From: Ruficoccus sp. ZRK36
Lineage (GTDB): Bacteria > Verrucomicrobiota > Verrucomicrobiia > Opitutales > Cerasicoccaceae
Direction: 5' to 3'
Assembly (NCBI RefSeq): GCF_019603315.1
Contig: NZ_CP080649.1
Location: forward strand, 186,001-250,000
Length of the DNA stretch: 64,000 nucleotides
A program made the position numbers and the translations under genes. Numbering within the stretch: position 1 is the stretch's first letter; every line of letters begins with the position of its first letter. This document shows positions 1 through 23,269 of the stretch, in pieces. The notes beneath the pieces were generated by a model, which was not told the DNA's origin, searched no databases, and worked only from the letters and a program-made list of their open reading frames with translations.

Positions 1-603
1 GACTTCCTCGTTGAGCGCGGCGGTCATGTCCGTGGCGATAAAGCCGGGCGCAACCGCGTTGACCGTGATGCCCCGGGAGGCAACTTCGCGGGCCATGGAC
101 TTGGTCAGGCCGAAAATACCGGCCTTGGCGGCGGCATAATTGACCTGTCCAGGGTTCCCCATGATCCCGACGACCGAGGAAATATTGATCACGCGGCCCC
201 AGCGCTTCTTCGTCATCGGACGAAGCAGCCCCTTGGACCAGTAGAAGCAGCTGGAGAGGTTCGTGGAGATGACCTCGTTCCAGTCCTCGTCGCTCATGCG
301 CAGCATGAGGGTATCGCGGGTGATCCCGGCGTTGTTGACGAGGATATCTACGTTTTCGTGCTCCTTGATGAGCGATTCGCAGGCGTCGGCTACCATGGCG
401 CCGTCGGAGACGTCCACGGCCAGTGCGGAGGCCTTGCCCCCCTGGGCCTTGATGGCGTCGGCAGCAGCGCCGCAGGAGGATTCGTTGCGGCTGACGCACA
501 CCACGTGCACGCCCTCGGCCGCAAGGCCTTCGGCGATTGAGCGGCCAATTCCACGGCCTGCTCCTGTGACCACGGCCACTTTGTTGTCAAATGTCAGCTT
601 CAT
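1..603 (-). CDS. fabG: 3-oxoacyl-ACP reductase FabG (3' end outside window)
   Basis: NADPH-dependent reduction of 3-oxoacyl-ACP in type II fatty acid synthesis, in the cytoplasm. I translated the reverse strand from the ATG at 603: it opens MKLTFDNKVAVVTGAGRGIG, which holds the short-chain dehydrogenase TGxxxGIG cofactor loop. It continues with the NNAG motif, an ISS catalytic-serine strand and the YAAAK catalytic pair, followed by the substrate-loop VAPGFIATDM. 201 codons are inside the window; the family is about 245 residues, so roughly 45 C-terminal residues lie to the left. It is divergent from cls. The order of motifs makes FabG more likely than a generic SDR. Confidence 0.93.
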   Translation of the reverse strand, partial: MKLTFDNKVAVVTGAGRGIGRSIAEGLAAEGVHVVCVSRNESSCGAAADAIKAQGGKASALAVDVSDGAMVADACESLIKEHENVDILVNNAGITRDTLMLRMSDEDWNEVISTNLSSCFYWSKGLLRPMTKKRWGRVINISSVVGIMGNPGQVNYAAAKAGIFGLTKSMAREVASRGITVNAVAPGFIATDMTAALNEEV

Positions 604-10685: not shown

Positions 10686-13655
10686 TCACGCGCCCAGTGC
10701 CGCGAAGGTACCGCGCAAGCGCTCGGCGATTTCCGGGATGGGGGTCTCGGCGATTTCCTCCAGCGGGATGCGTACGGCGGGCGTCTGCGGCAGCTCGGTC
10801 AGGGGCTCACTGATGCACAGGTCGCGGTTGGCGGCCACCTCGTCGATGCGCCCGGTAGGCGTCGTCAACGGAGCGCGCTTGAGCAACTCGGGCTGTTCGC
10901 GAACCAGCTCCAGAATGGCCAGCGTGGCGTCGGCCAGACGGTCGAGCTCGGCGCGCGTATAGCTCTCGGTCGGCTCAAACATGATACCGAGCATTTCCGG
11001 CCAGGCGACGGTTGGCGCGTGGAAGCCAAAGTCCAGGAAGAGCTTGCCGAGGCTGGGCATGATCGATGTCTTCGCGACACCGGCAGCCTCCACCGTGGCG
11101 AAGTCCTCCGCCGTGAGCGTGAGGATAAACTCGTGCATGCGAGGCAGCTCTCCGGTCCCGGCGGGCAGAGTGGCGTACTGGCCACGGGTGCGCTCAAAGA
11201 GGTAGCGGGCCGCCAGCACGGCGGTAGCCGACATACGGCGGATGCCCTCGCCACCGAGCCGCAGCAGGTAGGTGTAGCAGCGGATCTTGTGGCCGAAGTT
11301 CCCCCAGTGCCGATGGAAAGAACCGATCGAACGCGGGGCCTTGACCGGCGCGTAGCGACCATCGGGCGCGCACTCGACCTGATGGCCCGGCAGGTACGGC
11401 AGCAGACGTCCACTGACGGCGACAATCGCATCACCCGGACCCCCTCCACCGTGCGGGATCGTCCAGGTCTTGTGCAGGTTGTTGTGGACGGCGTCCACGC
11501 CCATCGCCCCGAGGTTTACCCAGCCGGCGATGGCGTTCATGTTTGCTCCGTCCATGTAAACTAGTCCGCCAATGGCGTGGATCTTGTCGGCGATAGTTTT
11601 AAAATGCGTCTCGAAGATGCCACTGGTGTTCGGGTTGGTAATCATGACCCCGGCGATACGCTCGCCGTAGGTGCCGATGACCTCGTCGAGCTGGGCCAGG
11701 TCGATCTGGCCGTCGTCTCCGGCCTCCAGCAGCACGATTCCACCCTTGGGGGTCACACCGGGGCGCGGCGTGTAGCCCGCCATGGCGGCGGTGGCAAAGT
11801 TCGTCCCGTGGGCCGAACGGGGGATCAGGATGACATCGCGGCGGTGGTCGGAGTGGTCGCGGTGGTAGGCCTGAAACAGCTTTAAGCCGACCAGCTCGCC
11901 CTGCGCACCGGCCAGCGGCTGCGTGGTGAGCCCGGCCAGACCGGTGATACCCTTGAACCATTCCTGAATCTCAAAGAGCAGCTTGAGGCAGCCCTGCACA
12001 TCGTCGATGGGGGCCTGCGGGTGCGCCTGGGTAAAGCCCGGCAGCGAGGCGGCCTCGTCGTTGACGAAGGGGTTGTACTTCATCGTGCACGAGCCCAGCG
12101 GGTACGGGCTGTCATCGGGGCTGACGTTGAGAGCGCCGAGCTTTTTATAGTAAGCGAGCACCTCATCGTAGCCAAAGCTGGGCAGGCCAACGGCACCTTC
12201 GCGCAGCGCGGAGGCGGGGACGTCGGGAAGCTCGACCGACTTTTTAGCCGGGCCAAACTGCGACTCGAAGAACGCCACCAGATTTGTGATCCCGGCGTGG
12301 ATGTCCGAGAAGGAAAGTTTGAGCAGATTCTGCCCACCCTTGACGCGGCGGCTGGCATCCACGCCCAGGTGCAGCCCGGCCTCGCGACCAGCACGGAGCA
12401 CATCCTGCACGGGGCGGTCGAGCTTGAGCGTAAACTCGTTATAGAATGGGCTCTCCGGGTAAAGCAGCTCCACCCCCTCCAGCGCGCAGAGTGCGCGGGC
12501 GGCTTCGCGGGCACGTTCGCGGGCAGCCGAAGCAGCCTCGGCCATCCCCTCTTCACCGCGCTCCAGCACGGAGGCACCGGCCACCGTGGCGATAAAGGCC
12601 TGATTGGAGCAAATGTTCGAGGTCGCCTTGTCCTTGCGGATGTGTTGCTCGCGGGTGGACATGACAGCCACGCGGCAGTCACGCCCCTCGCCGTCGCGGC
12701 CCTTGCCCACGTAGCGGCCCGGCGTCGCACGCACGTGGTTGGAAATCTCGCTGTTGTGGCGCACGGCGAACAGCCCCAGACCGGGTCCGCCGAAGTTCGG
12801 AGCCAGCGCCAAATGCTGGGCCTCGCCTACTACGATATCCGCCCCGGTCTCGCCAAAGGCCGTCGGAGGCTTCAGGCCACTCGTGCCCAGCAGCATCGGG
12901 TCGATCATGGCAATGGCGAGCACCCCGGCCTCGTGGGCCAGGTCGGTCAGCGCGTCCACATCCTCCAGGAGGCCCAGATCATTGACCTGCGGGAAGGCAA
13001 TCCCGGCCAGCGCTTCACCGGTCTCGGCGACAAGGCTTTTCAGGGCTTCGATGTCGAGGGCACCGGTCTGCACACTGCGCGGAGCCCAGCGGATTTCGAC
13101 TTCGGTGTCGGCGGCGAGGGTTTCCAGCACCTCACGGTCGCCGGGATAAATGGCCTCGGAGACGATGACCACGCTGCTCTTGCGCTTCAGGCGGATGGCC
13201 GCACAGGCAGCCTCAAAGAGCGCGGTCGAGCGGTCATAGAGGGAGGCGTTGACGGCCTCAAAGCCGGTCAGCATCCGCATCAAGCATTGATAAATCCAGT
13301 GGCAAAGCAGGGTTCCCTGGCTGCGCTCCGGCTGGTAGGGCGTGTAGGCGGTGGTCAGGTTACGGATCGCACTGACCTCGGCCACAATCGGCATCTGGCG
13401 AAACTGCGGCAGCCCGTCCCCAATGTACGACTCGCGGATCAGGTTCATGTCGGCCAGCTCACCCAGGCGGTCGAGCAGGTTCTCGTGGGCCTCGGCCTCG
13501 GGAAGCAGCAGCGGGCCGGAGAATTTCACATCCGTAGAAATGTGCCGAAAAAGGTCGGCAAGGTCTTTGGCTCCAACAGATTCCAACATTCCCTGAATGT
13601 CGGCTTCGGAGGCGGGGATGTAGTCGCGGGCGTGTTCGCGGTCAGTTTTGGCCAT
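10686..13655 (-). CDS. gcvP: glycine dehydrogenase (decarboxylating), fused P-protein
   Basis: PLP enzyme of the glycine cleavage system; decarboxylates glycine and loads aminomethyl onto the H protein. 989 residues. Residues about 1-470 correspond to the alpha subunit (GcvPA-like: YTPYQPERSQGTL, STREQHIRKDKATSNICSNQA). Residues about 483-989 correspond to the beta subunit (GSCTMKYNP, IPRSAHGTNFA, VYMDGANMNAI) with the PLP lysine at about 729 in NNLHKTWTIPHGGGGPG. The C-terminal half reads like the two-subunit type, so this seems to be a GcvPA-GcvPB fusion and not a copy of the E. coli form. gcvT is divergent; gcvH is not in the window. Confidence 0.93.
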   Translation of the reverse strand: MAKTDREHARDYIPASEADIQGMLESVGAKDLADLFRHISTDVKFSGPLLLPEAEAHENLLDRLGELADMNLIRESYIGDGLPQFRQMPIVAEVSAIRNLTTAYTPYQPERSQGTLLCHWIYQCLMRMLTGFEAVNASLYDRSTALFEAACAAIRLKRKSSVVIVSEAIYPGDREVLETLAADTEVEIRWAPRSVQTGALDIEALKSLVAETGEALAGIAFPQVNDLGLLEDVDALTDLAHEAGVLAIAMIDPMLLGTSGLKPPTAFGETGADIVVGEAQHLALAPNFGGPGLGLFAVRHNSEISNHVRATPGRYVGKGRDGEGRDCRVAVMSTREQHIRKDKATSNICSNQAFIATVAGASVLERGEEGMAEAASAARERAREAARALCALEGVELLYPESPFYNEFTLKLDRPVQDVLRAGREAGLHLGVDASRRVKGGQNLLKLSFSDIHAGITNLVAFFESQFGPAKKSVELPDVPASALREGAVGLPSFGYDEVLAYYKKLGALNVSPDDSPYPLGSCTMKYNPFVNDEAASLPGFTQAHPQAPIDDVQGCLKLLFEIQEWFKGITGLAGLTTQPLAGAQGELVGLKLFQAYHRDHSDHRRDVILIPRSAHGTNFATAAMAGYTPRPGVTPKGGIVLLEAGDDGQIDLAQLDEVIGTYGERIAGVMITNPNTSGIFETHFKTIADKIHAIGGLVYMDGANMNAIAGWVNLGAMGVDAVHNNLHKTWTIPHGGGGPGDAIVAVSGRLLPYLPGHQVECAPDGRYAPVKAPRSIGSFHRHWGNFGHKIRCYTYLLRLGGEGIRRMSATAVLAARYLFERTRGQYATLPAGTGELPRMHEFILTLTAEDFATVEAAGVAKTSIMPSLGKLFLDFGFHAPTVAWPEMLGIMFEPTESYTRAELDRLADATLAILELVREQPELLKRAPLTTPTGRIDEVAANRDLCISEPLTELPQTPAVRIPLEEIAETPIPEIAERLRGTFAALGA

Positions 13656-13903: not shown

Positions 13904-14983
13904 ATGTCCGACCTGAAGCAGACTCCGCTCATTGATTTTCACAAGAAACTGGGAGCACGTTGCGTGCCCTTTGCCGGCTGGGAAATGCCCGTCAGCTATG
14001 CCGGGATCATAGAGGAGCACCTCGCCGTGCGCCAGGCCTGCGGGTTCTTCGACGTGTGCCACATGGGCGAGTTTGTTGTGAGCGGGCCAGAGGCCGAGAA
14101 ATTCCTCGACGAGGCCCTGACCAACCGCATCGCTGGCACCCCTGCGGGTAAGGCCGTGTACTCCCCCCTCTGCGCCGAGGATGGCGGCACGATCGACGAC
14201 CTCATCGTCTACCGCGAAAGCGAGGAGGACTTTATCGTCGTGGTCAACGCCTCGAACATCGACAAGGACTTCGCCCGCTTCGAGGAGCTGGCTCCCAGCT
14301 ACGCGGTGACGCTGACAAATATTTCCGACGACACCGGGCTCATCGCCGTACAAGGCCCCAAGGCCACCGCCCTCGTACAATCCCTTGCTCCGGAGCTCAA
14401 ACTCCCCGGACGCTTCCGGCACATTCAGACCACCCTCGGCGAGATCAACTGCCGCATCTGCCGAACCGGCTACACCGGTGAGGACGGGGTCGAGATCATG
14501 TGCGCGGCCCAGGACGCCGTCGCCCTCGCGGAGCTGCTGACCGCGACCGGAGAGAGTTTCGGGGCGCAGTGGTGCGGGCTGGGTGCCCGCGACAGCCTCC
14601 GTCTGGAAGCGGGCTACCCCCTCTACGGCCACGAGCTGAGCGCGGAGATTTCCCCCGTCATGGCCGGGCTTGGCTGGGCGGTCAAGCTCGACAAAGAGCG
14701 CTTCAGCGGGCGTGAACCTCTCGCCGCTCAGGCCGCCGACAAGGCGCTGGCCGGGGTTAAGTTTTTCACCCTGGAAGGTCGCCGCATCGCCCGCGAAGGC
14801 ACCCCGGTCCTCGATGCGACCAATAAGGAAGTCGGCAAGGTCCTCTCCGGCACCATGTCCCCGGTCCTGAGCAAGCCCATCGGCTCGGCCCTGCTAGAGG
14901 CCGGAGCGCAGGCTCCGCTGCGGGTTGAGCTGCGCGGTCACCGGGCCGAGCTGGCACTGGCCAAACCGCCCTTGTATAAGTAA
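13904..14983 (+). CDS. gcvT: aminomethyltransferase (glycine cleavage T protein)
   Basis: Moves the aminomethyl carbon from the H protein to tetrahydrofolate and releases ammonia. 359 residues, normal length. Family motifs: PLIDFHKKLGARCVPFAGWEMPV across the N-terminus, FFDVCHMGEF, DEALTNRI, CRTGYTGEDGVEI, and the C-terminal GLGARDSLRLEAGYPLYGHEL. Divergent from gcvP over 248 bp, which suggests joint control of the cleavage system. A possible terminator hairpin, GGCAGC-ATTAACG-GCTGCC, follows at 15000-15018. Confidence 0.95.
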   Translation: MSDLKQTPLIDFHKKLGARCVPFAGWEMPVSYAGIIEEHLAVRQACGFFDVCHMGEFVVSGPEAEKFLDEALTNRIAGTPAGKAVYSPLCAEDGGTIDDLIVYRESEEDFIVVVNASNIDKDFARFEELAPSYAVTLTNISDDTGLIAVQGPKATALVQSLAPELKLPGRFRHIQTTLGEINCRICRTGYTGEDGVEIMCAAQDAVALAELLTATGESFGAQWCGLGARDSLRLEAGYPLYGHELSAEISPVMAGLGWAVKLDKERFSGREPLAAQAADKALAGVKFFTLEGRRIAREGTPVLDATNKEVGKVLSGTMSPVLSKPIGSALLEAGAQAPLRVELRGHRAELALAKPPLYK

Positions 14984-16264: not shown

Positions 16265-17509
16265 ATGCACAAGAGCACCCGCATTGTTATCACCGGCCTG
16301 GGGCTGACCGCCCCCAATGGCAATACCCTGGCCGAGTTCCGGCAGAACCTTCTTGGCGGCGTCGCCCGCCTGCAGAACATCGACATCCGCCACATGGGCC
16401 AGGTGCACGCCGGGGTGTGCGACTTTGATCCGCTCAAGTACCAGAAGCGCAAGGAGCTACGCAACGGCACCCGCGCTGGCAGCGTCTCGATCTACTGCGC
16501 CCGCGAAGCCATTGCTGACAGCGGCCTGGATCTGGAGAGCCTGGACAAGAGCCGCGTCGGCGTCTACCTCGGCATCACCGAGCACGGCAACGTAGAGACC
16601 GAGAACGAGATCTTCAACATCTCGCAGTTCGACTACGACACGAAGTTCTGGACGCACCACCACAACCCCCGCACCGTGGCCAATAACCCCGCCGGGGAAG
16701 TCACGCTGAATCTCGGCATCACCGGACCGCACTACACCATCGGTGCCGCCTGCGCCGCCGGCAACGCCGGCCTCATCCAGGCCGCCCAGATGCTCATGCT
16801 CGGTGAGTGCGACCTCGCCCTGGCAGGCGGCATCAGCGAGAGCATCCACACATTCGGGATTTTCGCCGGGTTTAAAAACCAGGGCGCCCTCGCCGTCAAT
16901 GAGGACCCCAACAAGGCCTCCCGCCCCTTTGACCAGGACCGCAATGGTATCGTGGTCTCCGAAGGCGGCTGCATCTACACCGTTGAGCGGCTGGAGGATG
17001 CGCAGGCCCGCGGCGCAAAGATTTACGGTGAAATCGCCGGTTGGTGCATCAACTCCGACGCTACCGACGCCGTTCTGCCCAACCCCGAACGTCAGGCCCA
17101 GTGCATGCGCTCCGCGCTCGCACGCGCCGGGATGGAGCCGGGGGACATCTCCATCGTTAACACCCACGCCACCGCCACAAAAATGGGTGACATCCAGGAA
17201 ATGACGGCGGTCCGCGAGGTCTTCGGGGGATGTGAAAACACTTGGGTTAACAACACCAAAAGCTTTATCGGACACGCCATGGGCGCTGCCGGGGCACTTG
17301 AGCTGGCCGGAAACCTGCCTGCCTTCGAGGACGGCGTCGTCCATCCCACGATCAATGTGGATAATCTTGACCCGGCATGCGAATTTCCCACGCTGGTCCT
17401 GAACGAGCCGAAAAAAATCGGCAGGGTTGACAGCATCCTGAACAACTCTTTCGGTATGCTCGGTATCAACTCCGCCCTCATTATCAAACGAGTTGCGGCC
17501 ACCCAGTAA
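16265..17509 (+). CDS. beta-ketoacyl-ACP synthase (FabF-like)
   Basis: Decarboxylative condensation that lengthens acyl-ACP chains. 414 residues, thiolase fold. The catalytic triad is visible: Cys163 in GAACAAGNAG, His301 in NTHATAT and His337 in IGHAMGAAGALE. The usual NTHGTGT is NTHATAT here and the usual TACATG-like nucleophile loop is GAACAAG, so it is divergent from housekeeping FabF. It starts a three-gene run with an acyl carrier protein (14 bases on) and a desaturase-like flavoprotein. This suggests a dedicated pathway, not central fatty acid synthesis. Confidence 0.88.
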   Translation: MHKSTRIVITGLGLTAPNGNTLAEFRQNLLGGVARLQNIDIRHMGQVHAGVCDFDPLKYQKRKELRNGTRAGSVSIYCAREAIADSGLDLESLDKSRVGVYLGITEHGNVETENEIFNISQFDYDTKFWTHHHNPRTVANNPAGEVTLNLGITGPHYTIGAACAAGNAGLIQAAQMLMLGECDLALAGGISESIHTFGIFAGFKNQGALAVNEDPNKASRPFDQDRNGIVVSEGGCIYTVERLEDAQARGAKIYGEIAGWCINSDATDAVLPNPERQAQCMRSALARAGMEPGDISIVNTHATATKMGDIQEMTAVREVFGGCENTWVNNTKSFIGHAMGAAGALELAGNLPAFEDGVVHPTINVDNLDPACEFPTLVLNEPKKIGRVDSILNNSFGMLGINSALIIKRVAATQ

Positions 17510-17523
17510 ATTGACCAAGGAAC

Positions 17524-17781
17524 ATGACCAAAGACGAAATCAAGCAGATCGTGCTGGATATTATCGCTGAAATCGCGCCCGACGAGGATCTCTCGGACGT
17601 CAAGCCTGACGTGCGTCTGCGCGACCAGCTCGACCTGGATTCCATGGACTTTCTCGACATCGTGATGGAGCTGCGCAAGCAGCATGGCATCGAAGTGCCC
17701 GAAGAGGAGTACCCAAAGCTGGCCTCCCTCGACAGCTGCGCTGACTACCTTGAGCCGAAATTCGCGGCTCTGAAGGCCTAG
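17524..17781 (+). CDS. acyl carrier protein
   Basis: 85 residues, acidic, with the phosphopantetheine attachment motif DLDSMDFLD (Ser40). Length and the helix II pattern fit ACP. It follows the ketosynthase by 14 bases, so it is almost surely its partner. The sequence after DSMD (FLDIVMELRKQHGIEVPEEEY) resembles carriers of specialised fatty-acid or polyene clusters more than AcpP, which is an inference. Confidence 0.9.
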   Translation: MTKDEIKQIVLDIIAEIAPDEDLSDVKPDVRLRDQLDLDSMDFLDIVMELRKQHGIEVPEEEYPKLASLDSCADYLEPKFAALKA

Positions 17782-17867
17782 TCGCGCTTTCCCCCGCCTC
17801 CCGTTAAGCGGCCACCAGGCCGCATGACGGGAGTTTCACGTTTATATCCCCCAATCGGAACCAGCGC

Positions 17868-19247
17868 TTGGCTGAGCGATACGACACGATCATTATCGGC
17901 GCGGGCTTTGCCGGACTCTCCGCGGGCATTCGGCTGGCCCAGTTCCAGCAGCGCGTGCTCATTCTGGAGGCCCACACGCTGCCCGGTGGGCTCAACTCGT
18001 ACTACTTCCGCGGCAAGGGGAATCTCTACAACAGCGGGCTGCACACGGTCACCAACTTCAACGCGAAGAACCGCCGTTGGGGCTTTGGGCTGATCTGCCG
18101 TAATCTCGGCATCGATCCGGCGGACTTCCGGCTCGTCCCGCCCAAGCACCCCTCCGCCCTGCAAATGCCGCAGGGGGAGCTGCTCTTCGGTAACGACCTG
18201 GAGCTGCTCCGCAGCTCGATCCGGGATAAATTCCCTGATGAGATCGACGCCTTTGACCGCTTCTGTGCGGACCTGAAGACACCCCGCGACCCCGCCGAGC
18301 TCCAGCGCGCAGGCAGCCGGGAGCTTTTAGACGGATACTTTTCCGACCCCCTGCTGATCGACCTGCTGGAGCTGCCCGTCTACATCTACGGCGGCTACCG
18401 TGAGGGGCAGATCGACGCCGCCACCTACGGCACGGTCTTCCGGTCGATCTTTCTGGAGGGCTGTGGCTCACCGCCCGACATCAAGCACGTCCTCGACCTG
18501 CTGATTGCCCGCTTTAAATCGCTGGGCGGCACCTTGAAAACCCGACGCCGCGTGGCCCGGATCGTGACCGAGGATGGAGCTTTCCGTGGGGTCGAGTTGG
18601 CCGATGGCACTCAGATCGAGGCCGACGCCTGCCTCTCCTCCGCCGGTCTGGCCGAAACCGGGCAGCTGGCCGGGCAAGCCTGGGGCAAAAGCGGCGATCT
18701 GTCCGTCTTTGAAACGGTCGTGGCCATGAACCGCCCGCTGGACGAGCTCGGCGTTGACCGCACCCTGCTCATGGTCTGCCTGGAGCCGGAGTTTCACTGG
18801 CGTGCCCCTGAGGGCCGTCAGGAGTACCTGCACCTCACGCTCGCAGCGTCCGACAACTACCTTTTTACCGACACGCCTGATGCGCACCATCTGAAGATCG
18901 GGTGCTTCCAGAAAGGCTCGCTCTGGCTCGGCCTGGATGAGGAAGGCTACCGGCGCGAAAAGCTCCTGCTGGAAGAAAAGATGCTCAACGAACTGACCAA
19001 GCGCTTCCCGGCGCTGCTGGACGAGCCGGTCCTCCACCATGAGTCTCTCAGCCCCAAAACCGTGGTGGACTACACCAGCCACCTCAACGGCGGCATCTAC
19101 GGCGGCAGTGTAAAAACTTTTGATGGTTCGACCCCGATTCAGGGTCTGTACGCGATCGGTAATGATCAGGCCGGGATCGGTATCATGGGCGCGCTCACGA
19201 GCGGCGTGATCGTAGCCAACTACAAAGTGGTTCTGGCCGGACAATAG
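17868..19247 (+). CDS. FAD-dependent phytoene-desaturase-like oxidoreductase
   Basis: 459 residues. The N-terminal dinucleotide-binding motif DTIIIGAGFAGLSAGIRLA is followed by LEAHTLPGGLNS, as in the CrtI/CrtISO family. The C-terminal IQGLYAIGNDQAGIGIMGALTSG is the second FAD-contact region. It starts at a TTG at 17868, which gives MAERYDTIIIGAG; no ATG gives a full Rossmann fold. It forms an operon-like group with the ketosynthase and ACP genes. Its substrate may be an acyl chain or polyene and not a carotenoid, since no other carotenoid gene is present. Similar trios occur in ladderane-type clusters of anammox bacteria, by memory. Confidence 0.82.
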   Translation: MAERYDTIIIGAGFAGLSAGIRLAQFQQRVLILEAHTLPGGLNSYYFRGKGNLYNSGLHTVTNFNAKNRRWGFGLICRNLGIDPADFRLVPPKHPSALQMPQGELLFGNDLELLRSSIRDKFPDEIDAFDRFCADLKTPRDPAELQRAGSRELLDGYFSDPLLIDLLELPVYIYGGYREGQIDAATYGTVFRSIFLEGCGSPPDIKHVLDLLIARFKSLGGTLKTRRRVARIVTEDGAFRGVELADGTQIEADACLSSAGLAETGQLAGQAWGKSGDLSVFETVVAMNRPLDELGVDRTLLMVCLEPEFHWRAPEGRQEYLHLTLAASDNYLFTDTPDAHHLKIGCFQKGSLWLGLDEEGYRREKLLLEEKMLNELTKRFPALLDEPVLHHESLSPKTVVDYTSHLNGGIYGGSVKTFDGSTPIQGLYAIGNDQAGIGIMGALTSGVIVANYKVVLAGQ

Positions 19248-19566: not shown

Positions 19567-22314
19567 ATGGGCCTATTTGATGAACGCAAACTCGCTGGAC
19601 TATCCAAGGTTATGCCTTGGCCGTACTTGCTGTGCCAGCGTTCAGGGGAGATCGTCTATGCCAACCGCCATTTTCAGCGCCTGCTGAACGCCTCATACCC
19701 CCTCAGAAACGGCCCATCCGTACCGGAACTTTTCGAGTGCGTAGGCGGCGGAAACAGCGTGGCCGAGGAGTTGGCATGTACCATCCCGGGACGCGCCAGC
19801 CATGGTAAGTGGCAGCTCATCGACGAGCAGGAGAAGCTGATTTTCGAGGTCATGGTCGAGCAGGACCCTGACGATGCGGACCTGCTCTGGGTCATCGTGA
19901 TGGAGAACCCGGTCATCAACGACCAGATCGTCCTCGGCAGCCAGAGCGAGCTGCGCCTGCTCCAGATCCTGATGGATCACACCCTGGACTACGTGTACTT
20001 CCAGGACATCCGCGGGCACTTCATCATCGCCAACCGCGCCTTTCAGCGGCTGATCCGCACCCCCCACCCCGGCTACGAGATCGGGCGCAAGCTCTCGGAC
20101 TTCGTCAACGAGAAGACCGCCATCGCCTCCGAGGAGGTGGACCACGAGGTGCTGACCAGCCTGCAGCCGATCATTAACAACGTCAGCTATTTCCAGCTCA
20201 AGGACGGGCCGGGCCTCTGGCTGCAGTCTACGAAGATGCCGGTCTTCGACAGCAACAACAAGCGCCTCGGCGTCGTCTGCGTGAGCCGCAATATCTCCGA
20301 CTCCGTCGAGCAGGAGCGCAAGCTGCGCGAGGCCATGACCCGCGCCGAGCAGGCCAGCCGCGCCAAGAGCGACTTCCTGGCGAACATGAGCCACGAGATC
20401 CGCACCCCGATCAACGGCATCATCGGGATGGCCGAGCTTTCGCTCGATTCCGACCTGGGCCCCGAGCAGGAGAAGTACGTCCAGACCATCGTTAATTGCA
20501 GCAACACCCTGCTCTCCCTCATCAACGACCTGCTCGACTTCTCGAAGATCGAGTCCGGGCAGCTTGAGCTTGAGGAGATCAATTTCAATCTGGTCACGCT
20601 CATGGAGGAGTGCCTCGACCAGTTCGTCGCCCAGACCCGCGAGAAGGGCATCGAGCTGGCACTCCAGATCAGCCCCGACCTGCCCGCCCATGTGCGCGGC
20701 GACCCCACCCGCTTCCGCCAGATCCTCAGTAACCTGATCAGCAATGCGGTCAAGTTCACCGACGAGGGCGAGATCGTAGTCTCGGCTCAGCCGACGGGAG
20801 AAGAGGACGGCTTGTCACGCCTCAGCTTCACCGTAGCCGACACGGGCATCGGCATCCCCGATTGCCGCAAAGACGCGATCTTTGACAGCTTCACCCAGGC
20901 AGACTCTTCGACCACCCGTAAGTACGGGGGCACCGGGCTGGGCCTGTCCATCTGCCGCCAGCTGGCGGAGATGATGGGCGGCATGATCAGCGTGGACAGC
21001 TGCCTGGACAAAGGCTCGGCCTTCACGGTGGAGATTCCTTTCCAGACCTTCAAGCGCCGCGATAGCGTCCCCCGTAAGCAGTTGAAAAAGCTGCAGGGGA
21101 TGCGCGTCCTGATCATCGACGACCACCAGACCAATCGCACCATCCTCTCGGAGCTGTGCAAGAACTGGGGGCTCGATGCCCAGGAAGCTCAGGGCGGCCT
21201 GCAAGCACTCGAAATGCTGGAGCGCGCAGTCGAGATCGGTAAGCCCTACCAGCTCATCCTGCTCGACCAGCAGATGCCACACCTGAGCGGGCTCGAAGTC
21301 GCCGGGCTGATCGTCAACCGCCAGCAGCTGGCCGGTGCTAAGATCGTCCTGCTGTCCTCCTCGCTCAATCAGGACGAGACCCGACGCGCCACAAAGCTCG
21401 GCATCCAGCGTTTCCTGAGCAAGCCCATCAAGCAATCCGTATTACTGGAGGCCCTGCTTGAGCTTTTCGAGCTCTCGACCCCGATGCGTCAGCATCCCTC
21501 GCGCTCGGTCAGCACCCAACTGCAGCAGCAGCCGCAGACCGAGAGTGCCATGAAGCCCATGCGCATCCTGCTGGCCGAGGATAACCCGATCAATCAGGAG
21601 GTCACCCTCCGACGGCTGAAAAAGATGGGGCACGACGTCACCCTGGTGGAAAATGGACGGCTCGCTGTCGAAGCCTGCCAGGCCGTGCGCTTTGACCTCG
21701 TTCTCATGGACGTGCAGATGCCCGAAATGGACGGCATCGAGGCCACCCGGCGAATCCGCGATCTGGAGAAACACCGTGGCTCACGCACCGTAATCGTTGC
21801 CATGACAGCACGGGCCATGTCCAGTGACGAGGCCCTGTGCCTGGAGGCGGGCATGGATGCCTACATCGCCAAACCCTTCCGCGCGGCCAAGCTCCAGGCG
21901 GTGTTTAACTCCATCGCAAACGGCCTCGGGCAGACCGCGAACGATGCCGACCAGTGTGCGCCCTCGCAGGCTTGCGATCTGGACCAACTCTTTCAGGAGC
22001 TCTCCCCCGAGGATCGGGAAGACCTCCACTCGGCCGCTGAGATCTTTCTACAAAATTACCGCACGGACTGGGACCGACTCCAGCACGCCTGGCAGAAGGG
22101 CGAGTTCCCGGAGATCAATCACCTCGCCCACAGCATCAAAGGGGGTGCCTTGATTTTCCAGGCCCGCCGCCTGAGCAAACTGGCGGAAAGCCTGGAGCTG
22201 GCCGCGCTCAACTCTGAGTCCGAGACCATCGTGACCCTTATGCCCGCCTTGGAAAAAGAGCTGGAGAGCTTTGCAAAACTTCTCCGCGCCTACCTCGGCA
22301 AGCGTAAGGTCTGA
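19567..22314 (+). CDS. hybrid sensor histidine kinase (PAS-HisKA-HATPase-REC-REC-HPt)
   Basis: 915 residues, BarA-type phosphorelay protein without obvious membrane helices, so probably cytoplasmic. A PAS-like domain lies at about 125-245 ([17 protein letters not shown]), the HisKA phospho-histidine at His276 in [15 protein letters not shown], and the ATP-binding domain to about 490 ([30 protein letters not shown]). Two receiver domains follow with Asp567 (LILLDQQMP) and Asp715 (LVLMDVQMP), both with the conserved lysine later on. A C-terminal HPt carries His855 in [11 protein letters not shown]. All relay residues are present. A separate output regulator is not adjacent. Confidence 0.93.
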
Positions 22315-22424: not shown

Positions 22425-22721
22425 ATGGCCGACCCGACAAATCCACTCGCCGCACCAGTTACCCAGACGGAAACTGAGGTAGAGTTGCCATGGCTGGTCA
22501 TCGTGCGTAACGACCCGGTCAACCTCATGGAGTATGTCGTCATGGTCTTCCGGCGTGTCTTCGGATACGATCTGGAAAAGGCCCGCAAGCACATGCTCGA
22601 AGTCCATGAGCTCGGGCGCTCAGTCCTGTGGTCCGGGGAGCGCGAGCAGGCCGAGTCCTACGTCTACCAGCTTCAGGAGTGGCAGCTCAGTGCCTGCCTC
22701 CAGCGCGACGAGGGCGAGTAA
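22425..22721 (+). CDS. clpS: ATP-dependent Clp protease adaptor ClpS
   Basis: Delivers N-degron substrates to ClpAP. 98 residues; the core WLVIVRNDPVNLMEYVVMVFRRVFGYD matches the ClpS N-end-binding fold (usual VLLLNDDxTPMEFV), with the conserved Asp and Met-Glu, then ARKHMLEVHELGRSVLWSGEREQAE, which matches the A-x-xx-M-x-x-VHxxG-x-a region. The N-terminal 20 residues are flexible. It is followed 104 bases on by a gene of the type often linked to clpS in Actinobacteria. No clpA is in the window. Confidence 0.9.
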   Translation: MADPTNPLAAPVTQTETEVELPWLVIVRNDPVNLMEYVVMVFRRVFGYDLEKARKHMLEVHELGRSVLWSGEREQAESYVYQLQEWQLSACLQRDEGE

Positions 22722-22825: not shown

Positions 22826-23269
22826 ATGCCTGAAATCCATCTGCACGTCAGTCCCATCTTCCTTACTACCTTCCGCGACCTCGTGGAGGGCTTCACTCGC
22901 CATGTCGGCGTGCAGCTCGCCGTGCAGGCAGATGGTCCCGACCCCGATGATGAAGACCTGATGGAAGCCTGGCGGGAAGGTCTGCTGGAGACCGTCCGCG
23001 ACGACTGCGCGCAGCTCATGCTGCTGCTGAACGACTCCGGCCTCGGGCAGGATAAGGTCGTGCTCTCAGAAGAGGCCGCGCTCAGCGTCTTGCGAGCCTG
23101 CTCAGCCGTCCGCCTGAAGATCCAGCAGCTGTTCCTCAAGCCCTACGGGGACGAGCAGCTCGAAGAGGGCGAACTGGACTTTGACGAAATGAGCATCGAG
23201 CTGCAGCAGGTCTACGCCTGCTACATCTTTCTGGCTGGACTGCAAGAGGTACTCATCCAGGAGCTGTAG
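22826..23269 (+). CDS. DUF2017-like protein next to clpS
   Basis: 147 residues, acidic and helical. The C-terminal segment LSEEAALSVLRACSAVRLKIQQLFL fits the pattern of actinobacterial DUF2017 (W/L-L-R-A-L-N-D-x-R-L-x-L-G-x-R-L), and the middle RDDCAQLMLLLND fits its earlier helix. In Actinobacteria DUF2017 genes sit beside clpS, the same arrangement as here. Assignment is by pattern memory only. The function is unknown; a part in the ClpS/ClpAP pathway is inferred from position. A hairpin overlaps the stop codon. Confidence 0.65.
   Translation: MPEIHLHVSPIFLTTFRDLVEGFTRHVGVQLAVQADGPDPDDEDLMEAWREGLLETVRDDCAQLMLLLNDSGLGQDKVVLSEEAALSVLRACSAVRLKIQQLFLKPYGDEQLEEGELDFDEMSIELQQVYACYIFLAGLQEVLIQEL

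What the first reader, a model, noticed from the sequence alone, without database searches (positions are those of the whole stretch)
16265..19247. Ketosynthase, ACP and phytoene-desaturase-like trio: possible specialised acyl pathway
Three tight plus-strand genes (gaps 14 and 86 bases) encode a divergent FabF-like enzyme (NTHATAT in place of NTHGTGT), its own ACP and a CrtI-like flavoprotein, with no other fatty-acid or carotenoid gene beside them. Clusters of this kind make unusual lipids such as ladderanes in anammox bacteria. An unknown lipid or polyene is possible.
Basis: partly seen in the sequence, partly recalled or inferred. Interest (0 to 1): 0.6.

Follow-up and report, generated by a model that had tools for sequence, protein, structure and literature searches.

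The report
Acyl trio tied to hydrocarbon synthesis
Three neighbouring bacterial genes (a fatty-acid chain extender, its carrier protein and a flavin enzyme) look like a dedicated acyl-chain module that is kept or lost together with the genes for making long oily hydrocarbons, which suggests a new way in which many Verrucomicrobiota bacteria may build an unusual membrane lipid.

Summary
The trio is real, at the stated coordinates. The ketosynthase (KS) is not housekeeping FabF: it misses the FabF cut-off (316 versus 494 bits), a true FabF lies elsewhere (627 bits), and the KS forms its own clade. It occurs in 104 of 132 genomes of the order (window's own included), usually beside ACP and flavoprotein (FAD1). 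The trio is part of a larger set: in four genomes it runs on into a second CrtI-like flavoprotein (FAD2), a FabZ-like dehydratase, a FabI-like reductase, OleA and an OleB-like hydrolase. In the window's genome these form a separate operon; OleC and OleD are present too. KS, FAD1, FAD2, OleA and OleC are nearly all-or-none: 86 of 132 genomes have all five, 21 none. PfaD, mark of the known polyunsaturated supplier of OleA, was found in 1 of 132. Best reading: a dedicated type II acyl synthase with CrtI-like flavoproteins working with OleABCD towards a long-chain, probably polyunsaturated, hydrocarbon. A surprise: the window's genus carries a different flavoprotein type (29-36% identical) from the usual one at that place. 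Product and flavoprotein chemistry are inferred. Ladderanes are not supported.

The parts
16265..17509 (+). Dedicated beta-ketoacyl-ACP synthase (KS), 414 aa; catalytic Cys-His-His and Lys kept; signature AACAAG / NTHATAT / NTKSFIGH / NSFGMLGIN
17524..17781 (+). Dedicated acyl carrier protein, 85 aa, DSM phosphopantetheine site
   Evidence: 72-98% identical in the relatives where it was found near FAD1
17798..17833 (+). RNA hairpin in the ACP-flavoprotein gap (possible attenuator or processing site; role unknown)
   Evidence: z -5.05 for the 86-base gap; hairpins also fold in the gaps of L005 and, weaker, L006, without shuffles
17868..19247 (+). CrtI-like FAD flavoprotein FAD1, type II variant, 459 aa, TTG start (TTG also in L005 and L006)

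Best explanation
The trio is the chain-building part of a dedicated second fatty-acid synthase that works with the OleABCD head-to-head hydrocarbon pathway. Proposed route: the KS elongates acyl chains on its own ACP; housekeeping FabG reduces; the FabZ-like dehydratase and FabI-like reductase of the second operon complete selected cycles; FAD1 and FAD2 (CrtI-like) set or rearrange double bonds. OleA then joins two chains head to head, OleD reduces, OleC closes the beta-lactone and OleB decarboxylates it to a long-chain, probably polyunsaturated, olefin for the membrane. Shown here: the genes, their conservation, the physical linkage in several families and the shared presence or absence. Inferred: the order of steps, the flavoprotein chemistry and the product.
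For: (1) Linkage: KS-ACP-FAD1-FAD2-dehydratase-FabI-like-OleA-OleB-like in one run in 4 genomes (G040, G127, G116, G043: L044, L045, L046, L066); in G030 the FabI-like and OleA genes lie upstream of KS-ACP-FAD1 (L050); in two genomes outside the class an OleA-like gene sits divergently beside KS-ACP-FAD1 (L143, L144). (2) The window's genome carries the other half at about G000:C1:2920292-2924978, OleC at C1:743495-745135 and OleD 3.3 kb from it. (3) Of 132 genomes of the order (own included), 86 have all five of KS, FAD1, FAD2, OleA and OleC, 17 have four, 7 three, 1 one, 21 none. (4) Dedicated enzymes: the genome also has its own FabF, a FabH-like gene beside a PlsX-like gene (by reading) and a FabV-type enoyl reductase, so the KS, OleA and FabI-like proteins are extra. 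(5) OleA passes its curated cut-off (409 vs 285 bits) and keeps the active-site Cys region and the Glu-Pro motif (PMC7064751, passages). (6) PfaD over cut-off in only 1 of 132 genomes, so the known source of polyunsaturated Ole precursors is missing.
Against: No product has been measured in this organism. In the window's genome the trio, the FAD2-OleAB operon and OleCD are in three separate places. Of 20 stretches fetched for FAD2, 10 show none of its four partner genes. Co-occurrence among relatives is not independent evidence for each genome; the losses group into a handful of lineages. Outside the class (19 loci fetched) FAD1 and OleA adjoin the KS in only 2. OleD (419 vs 580), the OleB-like hydrolase (177 vs 466 for haloalkane dehalogenase), the FabZ-like (95 vs 113) and FabI-like (171 vs 391) proteins miss curated cut-offs. 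The FabI-like gene was not found in G034, which keeps KS, FAD2 and OleA. The structure prediction of FAD1 failed (pLDDT 37).
Confidence: 0.7

Rival explanations
1. The KS-ACP module builds the chain, but the CrtI-like flavoproteins act after OleB, on the finished hydrocarbon in the membrane, as CrtI acts on the C40 hydrocarbon phytoene: they desaturate, isomerise or saturate the olefin.
For: CrtI relatives act on long membrane hydrocarbons (recalled); the best curated models are carotenoid isomerase for FAD1 and CrtD for FAD2, both far below cut-off. FAD2 lies 3.4 kb from oleC-oleD in G071 (L065).
Against: FAD1 sits directly behind KS-ACP in 17 of the 19 loci L037-L055 fetched for it, which favours an ACP-bound substrate.
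Confidence: 0.15
2. The trio makes a separate acyl product (for example a special membrane or lipid A acyl chain) and travels with the Ole genes only because both are ancestral lipid genes of the order.
For: The trio is physically apart from the Ole genes in the window's genome and in most stretches fetched; outside the class 17 of 19 KS loci show neither FAD1 nor OleA nearby; the trio persists in genomes of 0.8-1 Mb.
Against: Operon linkage in families f8 and f14, partial linkage in f22 and f59, and the nearly all-or-none pattern over 132 genomes.
Confidence: 0.12
3. The trio is a ladderane-type or anaerobic polyunsaturated fatty-acid cluster as in anammox bacteria and Desulfotalea.
For: Both pair extra KS and ACP genes with FabZ and 'phytoene desaturase' genes; D. 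psychrophila lacks PKS-type PUFA genes yet makes C31:8 and C31:9 hydrocarbons (PMC2649909, passages and section 9; PMC4790861, passages).
Against: No radical SAM gene was seen on reading the ORFs around the trio and the second operon; one KS with an intact Cys, whereas Kuenenia has extra KS paralogues without it (PMC2649909 Table 2). Sequences of those clusters could not be compared here.
Confidence: 0.1
4. The KS is a second housekeeping FabF and the flavoprotein a carotenoid enzyme; nothing special.
For: Catalytic residues are intact; FabF is the best curated family of the KS.
Against: 316 bits against a 494-bit FabF cut-off while the genome's own FabF scores 627; separate clade; flavoprotein 37 bits against the crtI_fam cut-off of 238.
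Confidence: 0.03

Closest known systems
OleABCD head-to-head olefin pathway (Xanthomonas, Shewanella, Micrococcus)
   Same: The window's genome holds OleA (over its cut-off), an OleB-like hydrolase with HDWGG (by reading), OleC (over cut-off) and an OleD-like reductase.
   Different: In the systems described in PMC6463001 (passages) the precursors come from the core FAS or from Pfa synthase; here a dedicated KS, ACP, dehydratase, FabI-like reductase and two CrtI-like flavoproteins go with the Ole genes.
Pfa synthase plus OleABCD (hentriacontanonaene in Shewanella, Geobacter bemidjiensis)
   Same: A dedicated acyl synthase is held to supply OleA (PMC6463001, PMC3098273, PMC4882568, passages).
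   Different: Type II discrete enzymes instead of multidomain Pfa; PfaD in 1 of 132 genomes, and there among other polyketide-type neighbours.
Ladderane-candidate and polyunsaturated-hydrocarbon clusters of Kuenenia and Desulfotalea psychrophila
   Same: Extra KS, ACP, FabZ and phytoene-desaturase-like flavoproteins (PMC2649909, PMC4790861, passages).
   Different: No radical SAM or methyltransferase gene seen in the operons read here; a single KS with intact active site; sequence relation untested.
CrtI / CrtD / CrtISO flavoprotein family
   Same: Nearest curated models.
   Different: The cut-offs of all carotenoid models listed are missed by a wide margin; no carotenoid-synthesis gene was seen on reading the ORFs beside either flavoprotein gene in the window's genome.

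Membership tests
Housekeeping FabF (KAS II) | Curated score cut-off TIGR03150 (493.75 bits) | tested here: not met
   315.7 bits; the genome's own FabF 626.6
Housekeeping FabF (KAS II) | Catalytic Cys-His-His and Lys | tested here: met
Housekeeping FabF (KAS II) | Gating loop GFGG with the Phe that guides the acyl chain | tested here: not met
   FGM(L/M/V/I/F)G in 41 of 41 trio-type rows: Met in place of the second Phe; role of the Phe from PMC2649909 Table 2
Phytoene desaturase CrtI | crtI_fam cut-off (238.1 bits) | tested here: not met
   FAD1 37.0, FAD2 78.1 bits
OleABCD pathway (for the partner genes) | OleA: model NF006720, active-site Cys, Glu117-Pro | tested here: met
   408.7 bits vs 285; NACL and LEPSTAS aligned to PDB 3row; that NF006720 and 3row are OleA is recalled
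OleABCD pathway (for the partner genes) | OleB: beta-lactone decarboxylase | tested here: inconclusive
   haloalkane-dehalogenase type, 176.7 bits vs 466; stands next to OleA
OleABCD pathway (for the partner genes) | OleC: NF006754 cut-off 478 bits | tested here: met
   649-652 bits in the window's genome; the Xanthomonas-type model NF045786 gives 555 of 900, not met
OleABCD pathway (for the partner genes) | OleD: NF042422 cut-off 580 bits | tested here: not met
   418.7 bits, full length, best family; beside or within 3.3 kb of OleC in 9 of 10 stretches fetched
OleABCD pathway (for the partner genes) | Long-chain olefin in the cells | not testable with these tools
   no lipid data; PMC7158056 (passages) says an earlier study reported olefin producers among Verrucomicrobia
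Pfa polyunsaturated fatty-acid synthase | PfaD (TIGR02814) | tested here: not met
   no match at E <= 1e-30 in the window's genome; 1 of 132 genomes has one
Ladderane-candidate cluster | Radical SAM enzymes in the cluster | tested here: not met
   none seen on reading the ORFs beside the trio or the FAD2 operon; no whole-genome search for radical SAM was made
Ladderane-candidate cluster | KS and flavoprotein in one clade with the Kuenenia/Desulfotalea proteins | not tested
Aryl polyene cluster | Neighbouring ligase, MMPL exporter, LolA, further KS | tested here: not met
   none seen beside the trio on reading the ORFs (compare E. coli CFT073); the place of the two CFT073 KS in the tree is unsure, long branches

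The most novel reading that the evidence does not exclude
A previously undescribed, oxygen-independent type II route to polyunsaturated chains: a dedicated KS and ACP with CrtI-like flavoproteins replaces Pfa synthase as the supplier of OleA, is widespread in this order (down to 0.8-1 Mb genomes), recurs outside the class, and is the sought precursor route behind polyunsaturated hydrocarbons in bacteria without Pfa; exchange of the flavoprotein (type I to type II) in the window's genus changes the double-bond pattern.
Probability: 0.35. Interest if true: 0.82.

Novelty: new variant of a known kind. Interest (0 to 1): 0.62.

Why it matters
Ole hydrocarbons are membrane lipids found in several phyla whose purpose is not settled, and the source of polyunsaturated chains in bacteria without PKS-type PUFA genes is open (raised for Desulfotalea in PMC2649909). 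Here is a small, conserved candidate set that can be moved into E. coli and tested. Its presence in 0.8-1 Mb genomes suggests a basic membrane role. It would also give a handle on what CrtI-like flavoproteins do in acyl pathways; the two anammox ones tested did not make lycopene and their activity remains unknown (PMC4790861, passages).

Tried and rejected
A sigma-54 promoter upstream of the KS (suggested by NtrC-like neighbours) was no better than shuffles overall. The idea that the FabI-like gene is the sole housekeeping enoyl reductase (one search found no second close copy) was rejected after FabV was found in 7 of 8 genomes; the window genome's 230-residue piece scores 370 bits on the FabV model, whose 400-bit cut-off is for the whole protein. 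Plasmid searches gave KS matches all under 60% identity (best listed 37.5%) and weak flavoprotein matches (5 records for FAD1, 1 for FAD2, 23-27% identity). PfaD in G075 lies near OleC, but the neighbours (a P450-like ORF, an acyltransferase-PfaD ORF) read as a polyketide cluster. The one genome-contig scan went to the flavoprotein and returned two loci, so anammox and Desulfotalea sequences were not reached. G086 gave no candidates at all and may be unreadable; it is one of the 21 'none' genomes.

Limits of the counts: absence lists for one search were read by me from the tables; genomes not printed there were taken as lacking a match. The five searches used different E-value limits (1e-20 to 1e-100). 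Genes cut by contig ends can count as absent. Loci fetched were chosen by me (long contigs, spread over families), not at random. No row that met the length rule was dropped in the KS tree or the FAD1 tree; L048 and L054 have no KS to include.
Full report
What is there. Three plus-strand genes: KS 16265-17509, ACP 17524-17781, flavoprotein (FAD1) 17868-19247, with gaps of 14 and 86 bases as stated. Upstream is a GH130 family gene, downstream a hybrid histidine kinase. The 86-base gap folds into a strong hairpin (z -5.05) of unknown role. The genome is G000 (3.76 Mb in 2 contigs; window = C1:186001-250000). 'Opitutales' for the order is an inference.

The KS is not FabF. It scores 315.7 bits against the FabF model (cut-off 493.75), while the genome's own FabF, just left of the window, scores 626.6. 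In a tree of 50 ketosynthases, 41 trio-type rows form one group with support 100/99. Outside it are E. coli FabF and FabB, two aryl-polyene KS of E. coli CFT073, the FabF and two further KS of G000, a FabF-like KS of G035 and the KS of G230. Several outside branches are very long and one aryl-polyene KS joins the stem of the group on such a branch, so nothing is claimed about the nearest relative. Cys, both His and Lys are kept. Of the 41 rows, 37 have AACAAG (the others GACA[AG]G), 40 have HAT[AGS]T (L143 has HGTGT) and 41 have FGMxG, with Met where FabB/F has the Phe said to guide the acyl chain (PMC2649909 Table 2).

Conservation. KS matches (E <= 1e-100) occur in 104 of 132 genomes of the order, own included; the relatives' are 66-95% identical, with one copy in 103 of the 104. 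FAD1 (E <= 1e-20) occurs in 104 of 132. In 17 of the 19 stretches L037-L055, chosen for FAD1, the order is KS-ACP-FAD1; L048 and L054 lack KS and ACP beside it. The carriers include several genomes of 0.8-1.0 Mb. In a draw of 387 genomes of the phylum, 113 have the KS at E <= 1e-85: 62 in the order (own included), 50 outside the class (59-71% identical) and one 42% match in the class, which falls outside the group in the tree. Of 19 stretches from outside the class, 13 have the ACP beside the KS, and 2 have FAD1 as well, both with an OleA-like gene divergently next door.

The second half. In G040, G127, G116 and G043 the run continues FAD1-FAD2-dehydratase-FabI-like-OleA-OleB-like. Of 20 stretches chosen for FAD2 (L057-L076), 8 carry FAD2, dehydratase, FabI-like, OleA and OleB-like together, 2 carry the first three, and 10 carry FAD2 without the other four; in one of these ten (L065) OleC and OleD lie 3.4 kb on. 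The window's genome is of the full kind, at about C1:2920292-2924978: FAD2, a FabZ-like protein (95 bits, cut-off 113), a FabI-like reductase (171 bits, cut-off 391) with the Y-x6-K pattern by reading, OleA (409, cut-off 285) and an alpha/beta hydrolase of haloalkane-dehalogenase type (177, cut-off 466) with HDWGG by reading. The OleA keeps the Cys region and the Glu-Pro motif that all but two OleA proteins of PMC7064751 share (passages). OleC is at C1:743495-745135 (652 bits, cut-off 478). OleD lies 3.3 kb from it on the same strand, with ORFs on the other strand between, and scores 419 bits against a cut-off of 580. OleD is beside or within 3.3 kb of OleC in 9 of 10 stretches fetched; G075 is the exception.

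Nearly all or none. From five searches over the same 132 genomes: KS 104, FAD1 104, FAD2 103, OleC 105, OleA 104. All five in 86, four in 17, three in 7, one in 1, none in 21. Every pairwise table is strongly skewed (Fisher p 2e-13 or lower), but the genomes are related, so these p-values overstate the evidence. Fifteen of the 'none' genomes were printed with their family: f7, f17, f28, one genus of f5, one genus of f8 and one incomplete genome of f24, while other members of f5, f8 and f24 have the set; the other six were not printed. This looks like several whole-set losses. G086, one of the 21, gave no candidates in seven searches and may be unreadable.

A dedicated, not housekeeping, set. 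Besides FabF the genome has a FabH-like gene next to a PlsX-like gene (names by reading) and a FabV-type enoyl reductase; FabV was found in 7 of 8 genomes tested, including G013, which lacks the pathway. So KS, OleA and the FabI-like protein are additional. The known polyunsaturated supplier of OleA, Pfa synthase, seems missing: PfaD passed its cut-off in 1 of 132 genomes, there among polyketide-type neighbours.

A different flavoprotein. FAD1 comes in two clades: type I (29 rows, 27 different, support 98/92, median identity 52% among themselves) and type II (the window, three relatives of its genus, G005, and a second copy in G068; support 99/93). The window's FAD1 is 29-36% identical to type I, 43% to the G068 copy and 38% to that of G005. 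Yet the KS and ACP beside it are 78-79% and 85-89% identical to those of G004 and G007, members of the same family that have type I. With the window's FAD1 as query only one match at E <= 1e-20 was found in each of G000-G003 and G005, so type I seems to be gone there; G068 has both, the type II copy without KS or ACP on its 9.2-kb contig. Long branches are flagged in that tree, so the depth of the split is unsure. A changed double-bond pattern in the window's genus is a natural but untested reading.

Mechanism. The papers say that OleA condenses two activated acyl chains, OleD reduces, OleC forms a beta-lactone and OleB decarboxylates it (PMC7158056, passages), and that the polyunsaturated Ole product of Shewanella oneidensis depends on Pfa synthase (PMC6463001, passages). 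D. psychrophila makes C31:8 and C31:9 hydrocarbons without PKS-type PUFA genes and has extra KS and phytoene-dehydrogenase-like genes in its lipid clusters (PMC2649909, passages and section 9). The present set fits the same idea with simpler gene content. Whether the flavoproteins act on ACP-bound chains or on the finished hydrocarbon is open. The two anammox flavoproteins tested did not make lycopene (PMC4790861, passages).

Print. Paper searches in an open-licence library: Verrucomicrobia + ketosynthase + phytoene desaturase + ACP, 0 papers; oleABCD + phytoene + hydrocarbon, 0 papers; the wider ones listed no paper whose title or abstract start describes this set, but I saw only the 10-15 rows listed out of 1,406, 50, 1,420 and 38. 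OleA, oleC and olefin producers in Verrucomicrobia, Opitutae or Opitutaceae are known (PMC7064751, PMC7158056, PMC10176705, passages). Sukovich 2010 was not held. New here, as far as those searches go: the tie of the KS-ACP-flavoprotein trio and the FAD2-dehydratase-FabI-like genes to Ole, and the two flavoprotein types.

Noticed in passing
window 1-603 (-): First 201 codons of a fabG-like gene; fabF follows just outside the window, so core fatty-acid genes are about 16 kb from the trio.
   Followed up: yes
window 19567-22314 (+): Hybrid histidine kinase directly after the trio; a homologue follows FAD1 in L005, L006, L037 and L038.
   Followed up: partly
window 22425-22721 and 22826-23269 (+): ClpS adaptor followed by a DUF2017 protein; similar pairs follow one another in L037 and L041.
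   Followed up: no
window 10686-13655 (-): Single-chain 989-aa glycine dehydrogenase (P-protein) beside gcvT at 13904-14983; ordinary.
   Followed up: no
L041, L044, L045, L066 (both); L050, L055, L038 and others (one or both): An NtrC-type response regulator and a galE-like gene often lie near the KS in relatives; no sigma-54 promoter stood out upstream of the KS.
   Followed up: partly
L099 9344-11508 (-), G000 C1 about 684 kb: Another KS with a FabA/Z-like hotdog protein and an ACP-like protein: a further unassigned acyl cluster in this genome (names by reading).
   Followed up: no
L145, L150, L151 and L148, L161: Outside the class, a ThyX-like gene follows KS-ACP in three loci, and in two loci a holo-ACP-synthase-like gene lies just upstream on the other strand (names by reading).
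   Followed up: no
L164 (G075 C24): OleC beside a polyketide-type cluster with PfaD, and no OleD in the stretch; unlike the other nine OleC loci fetched.
   Followed up: partly
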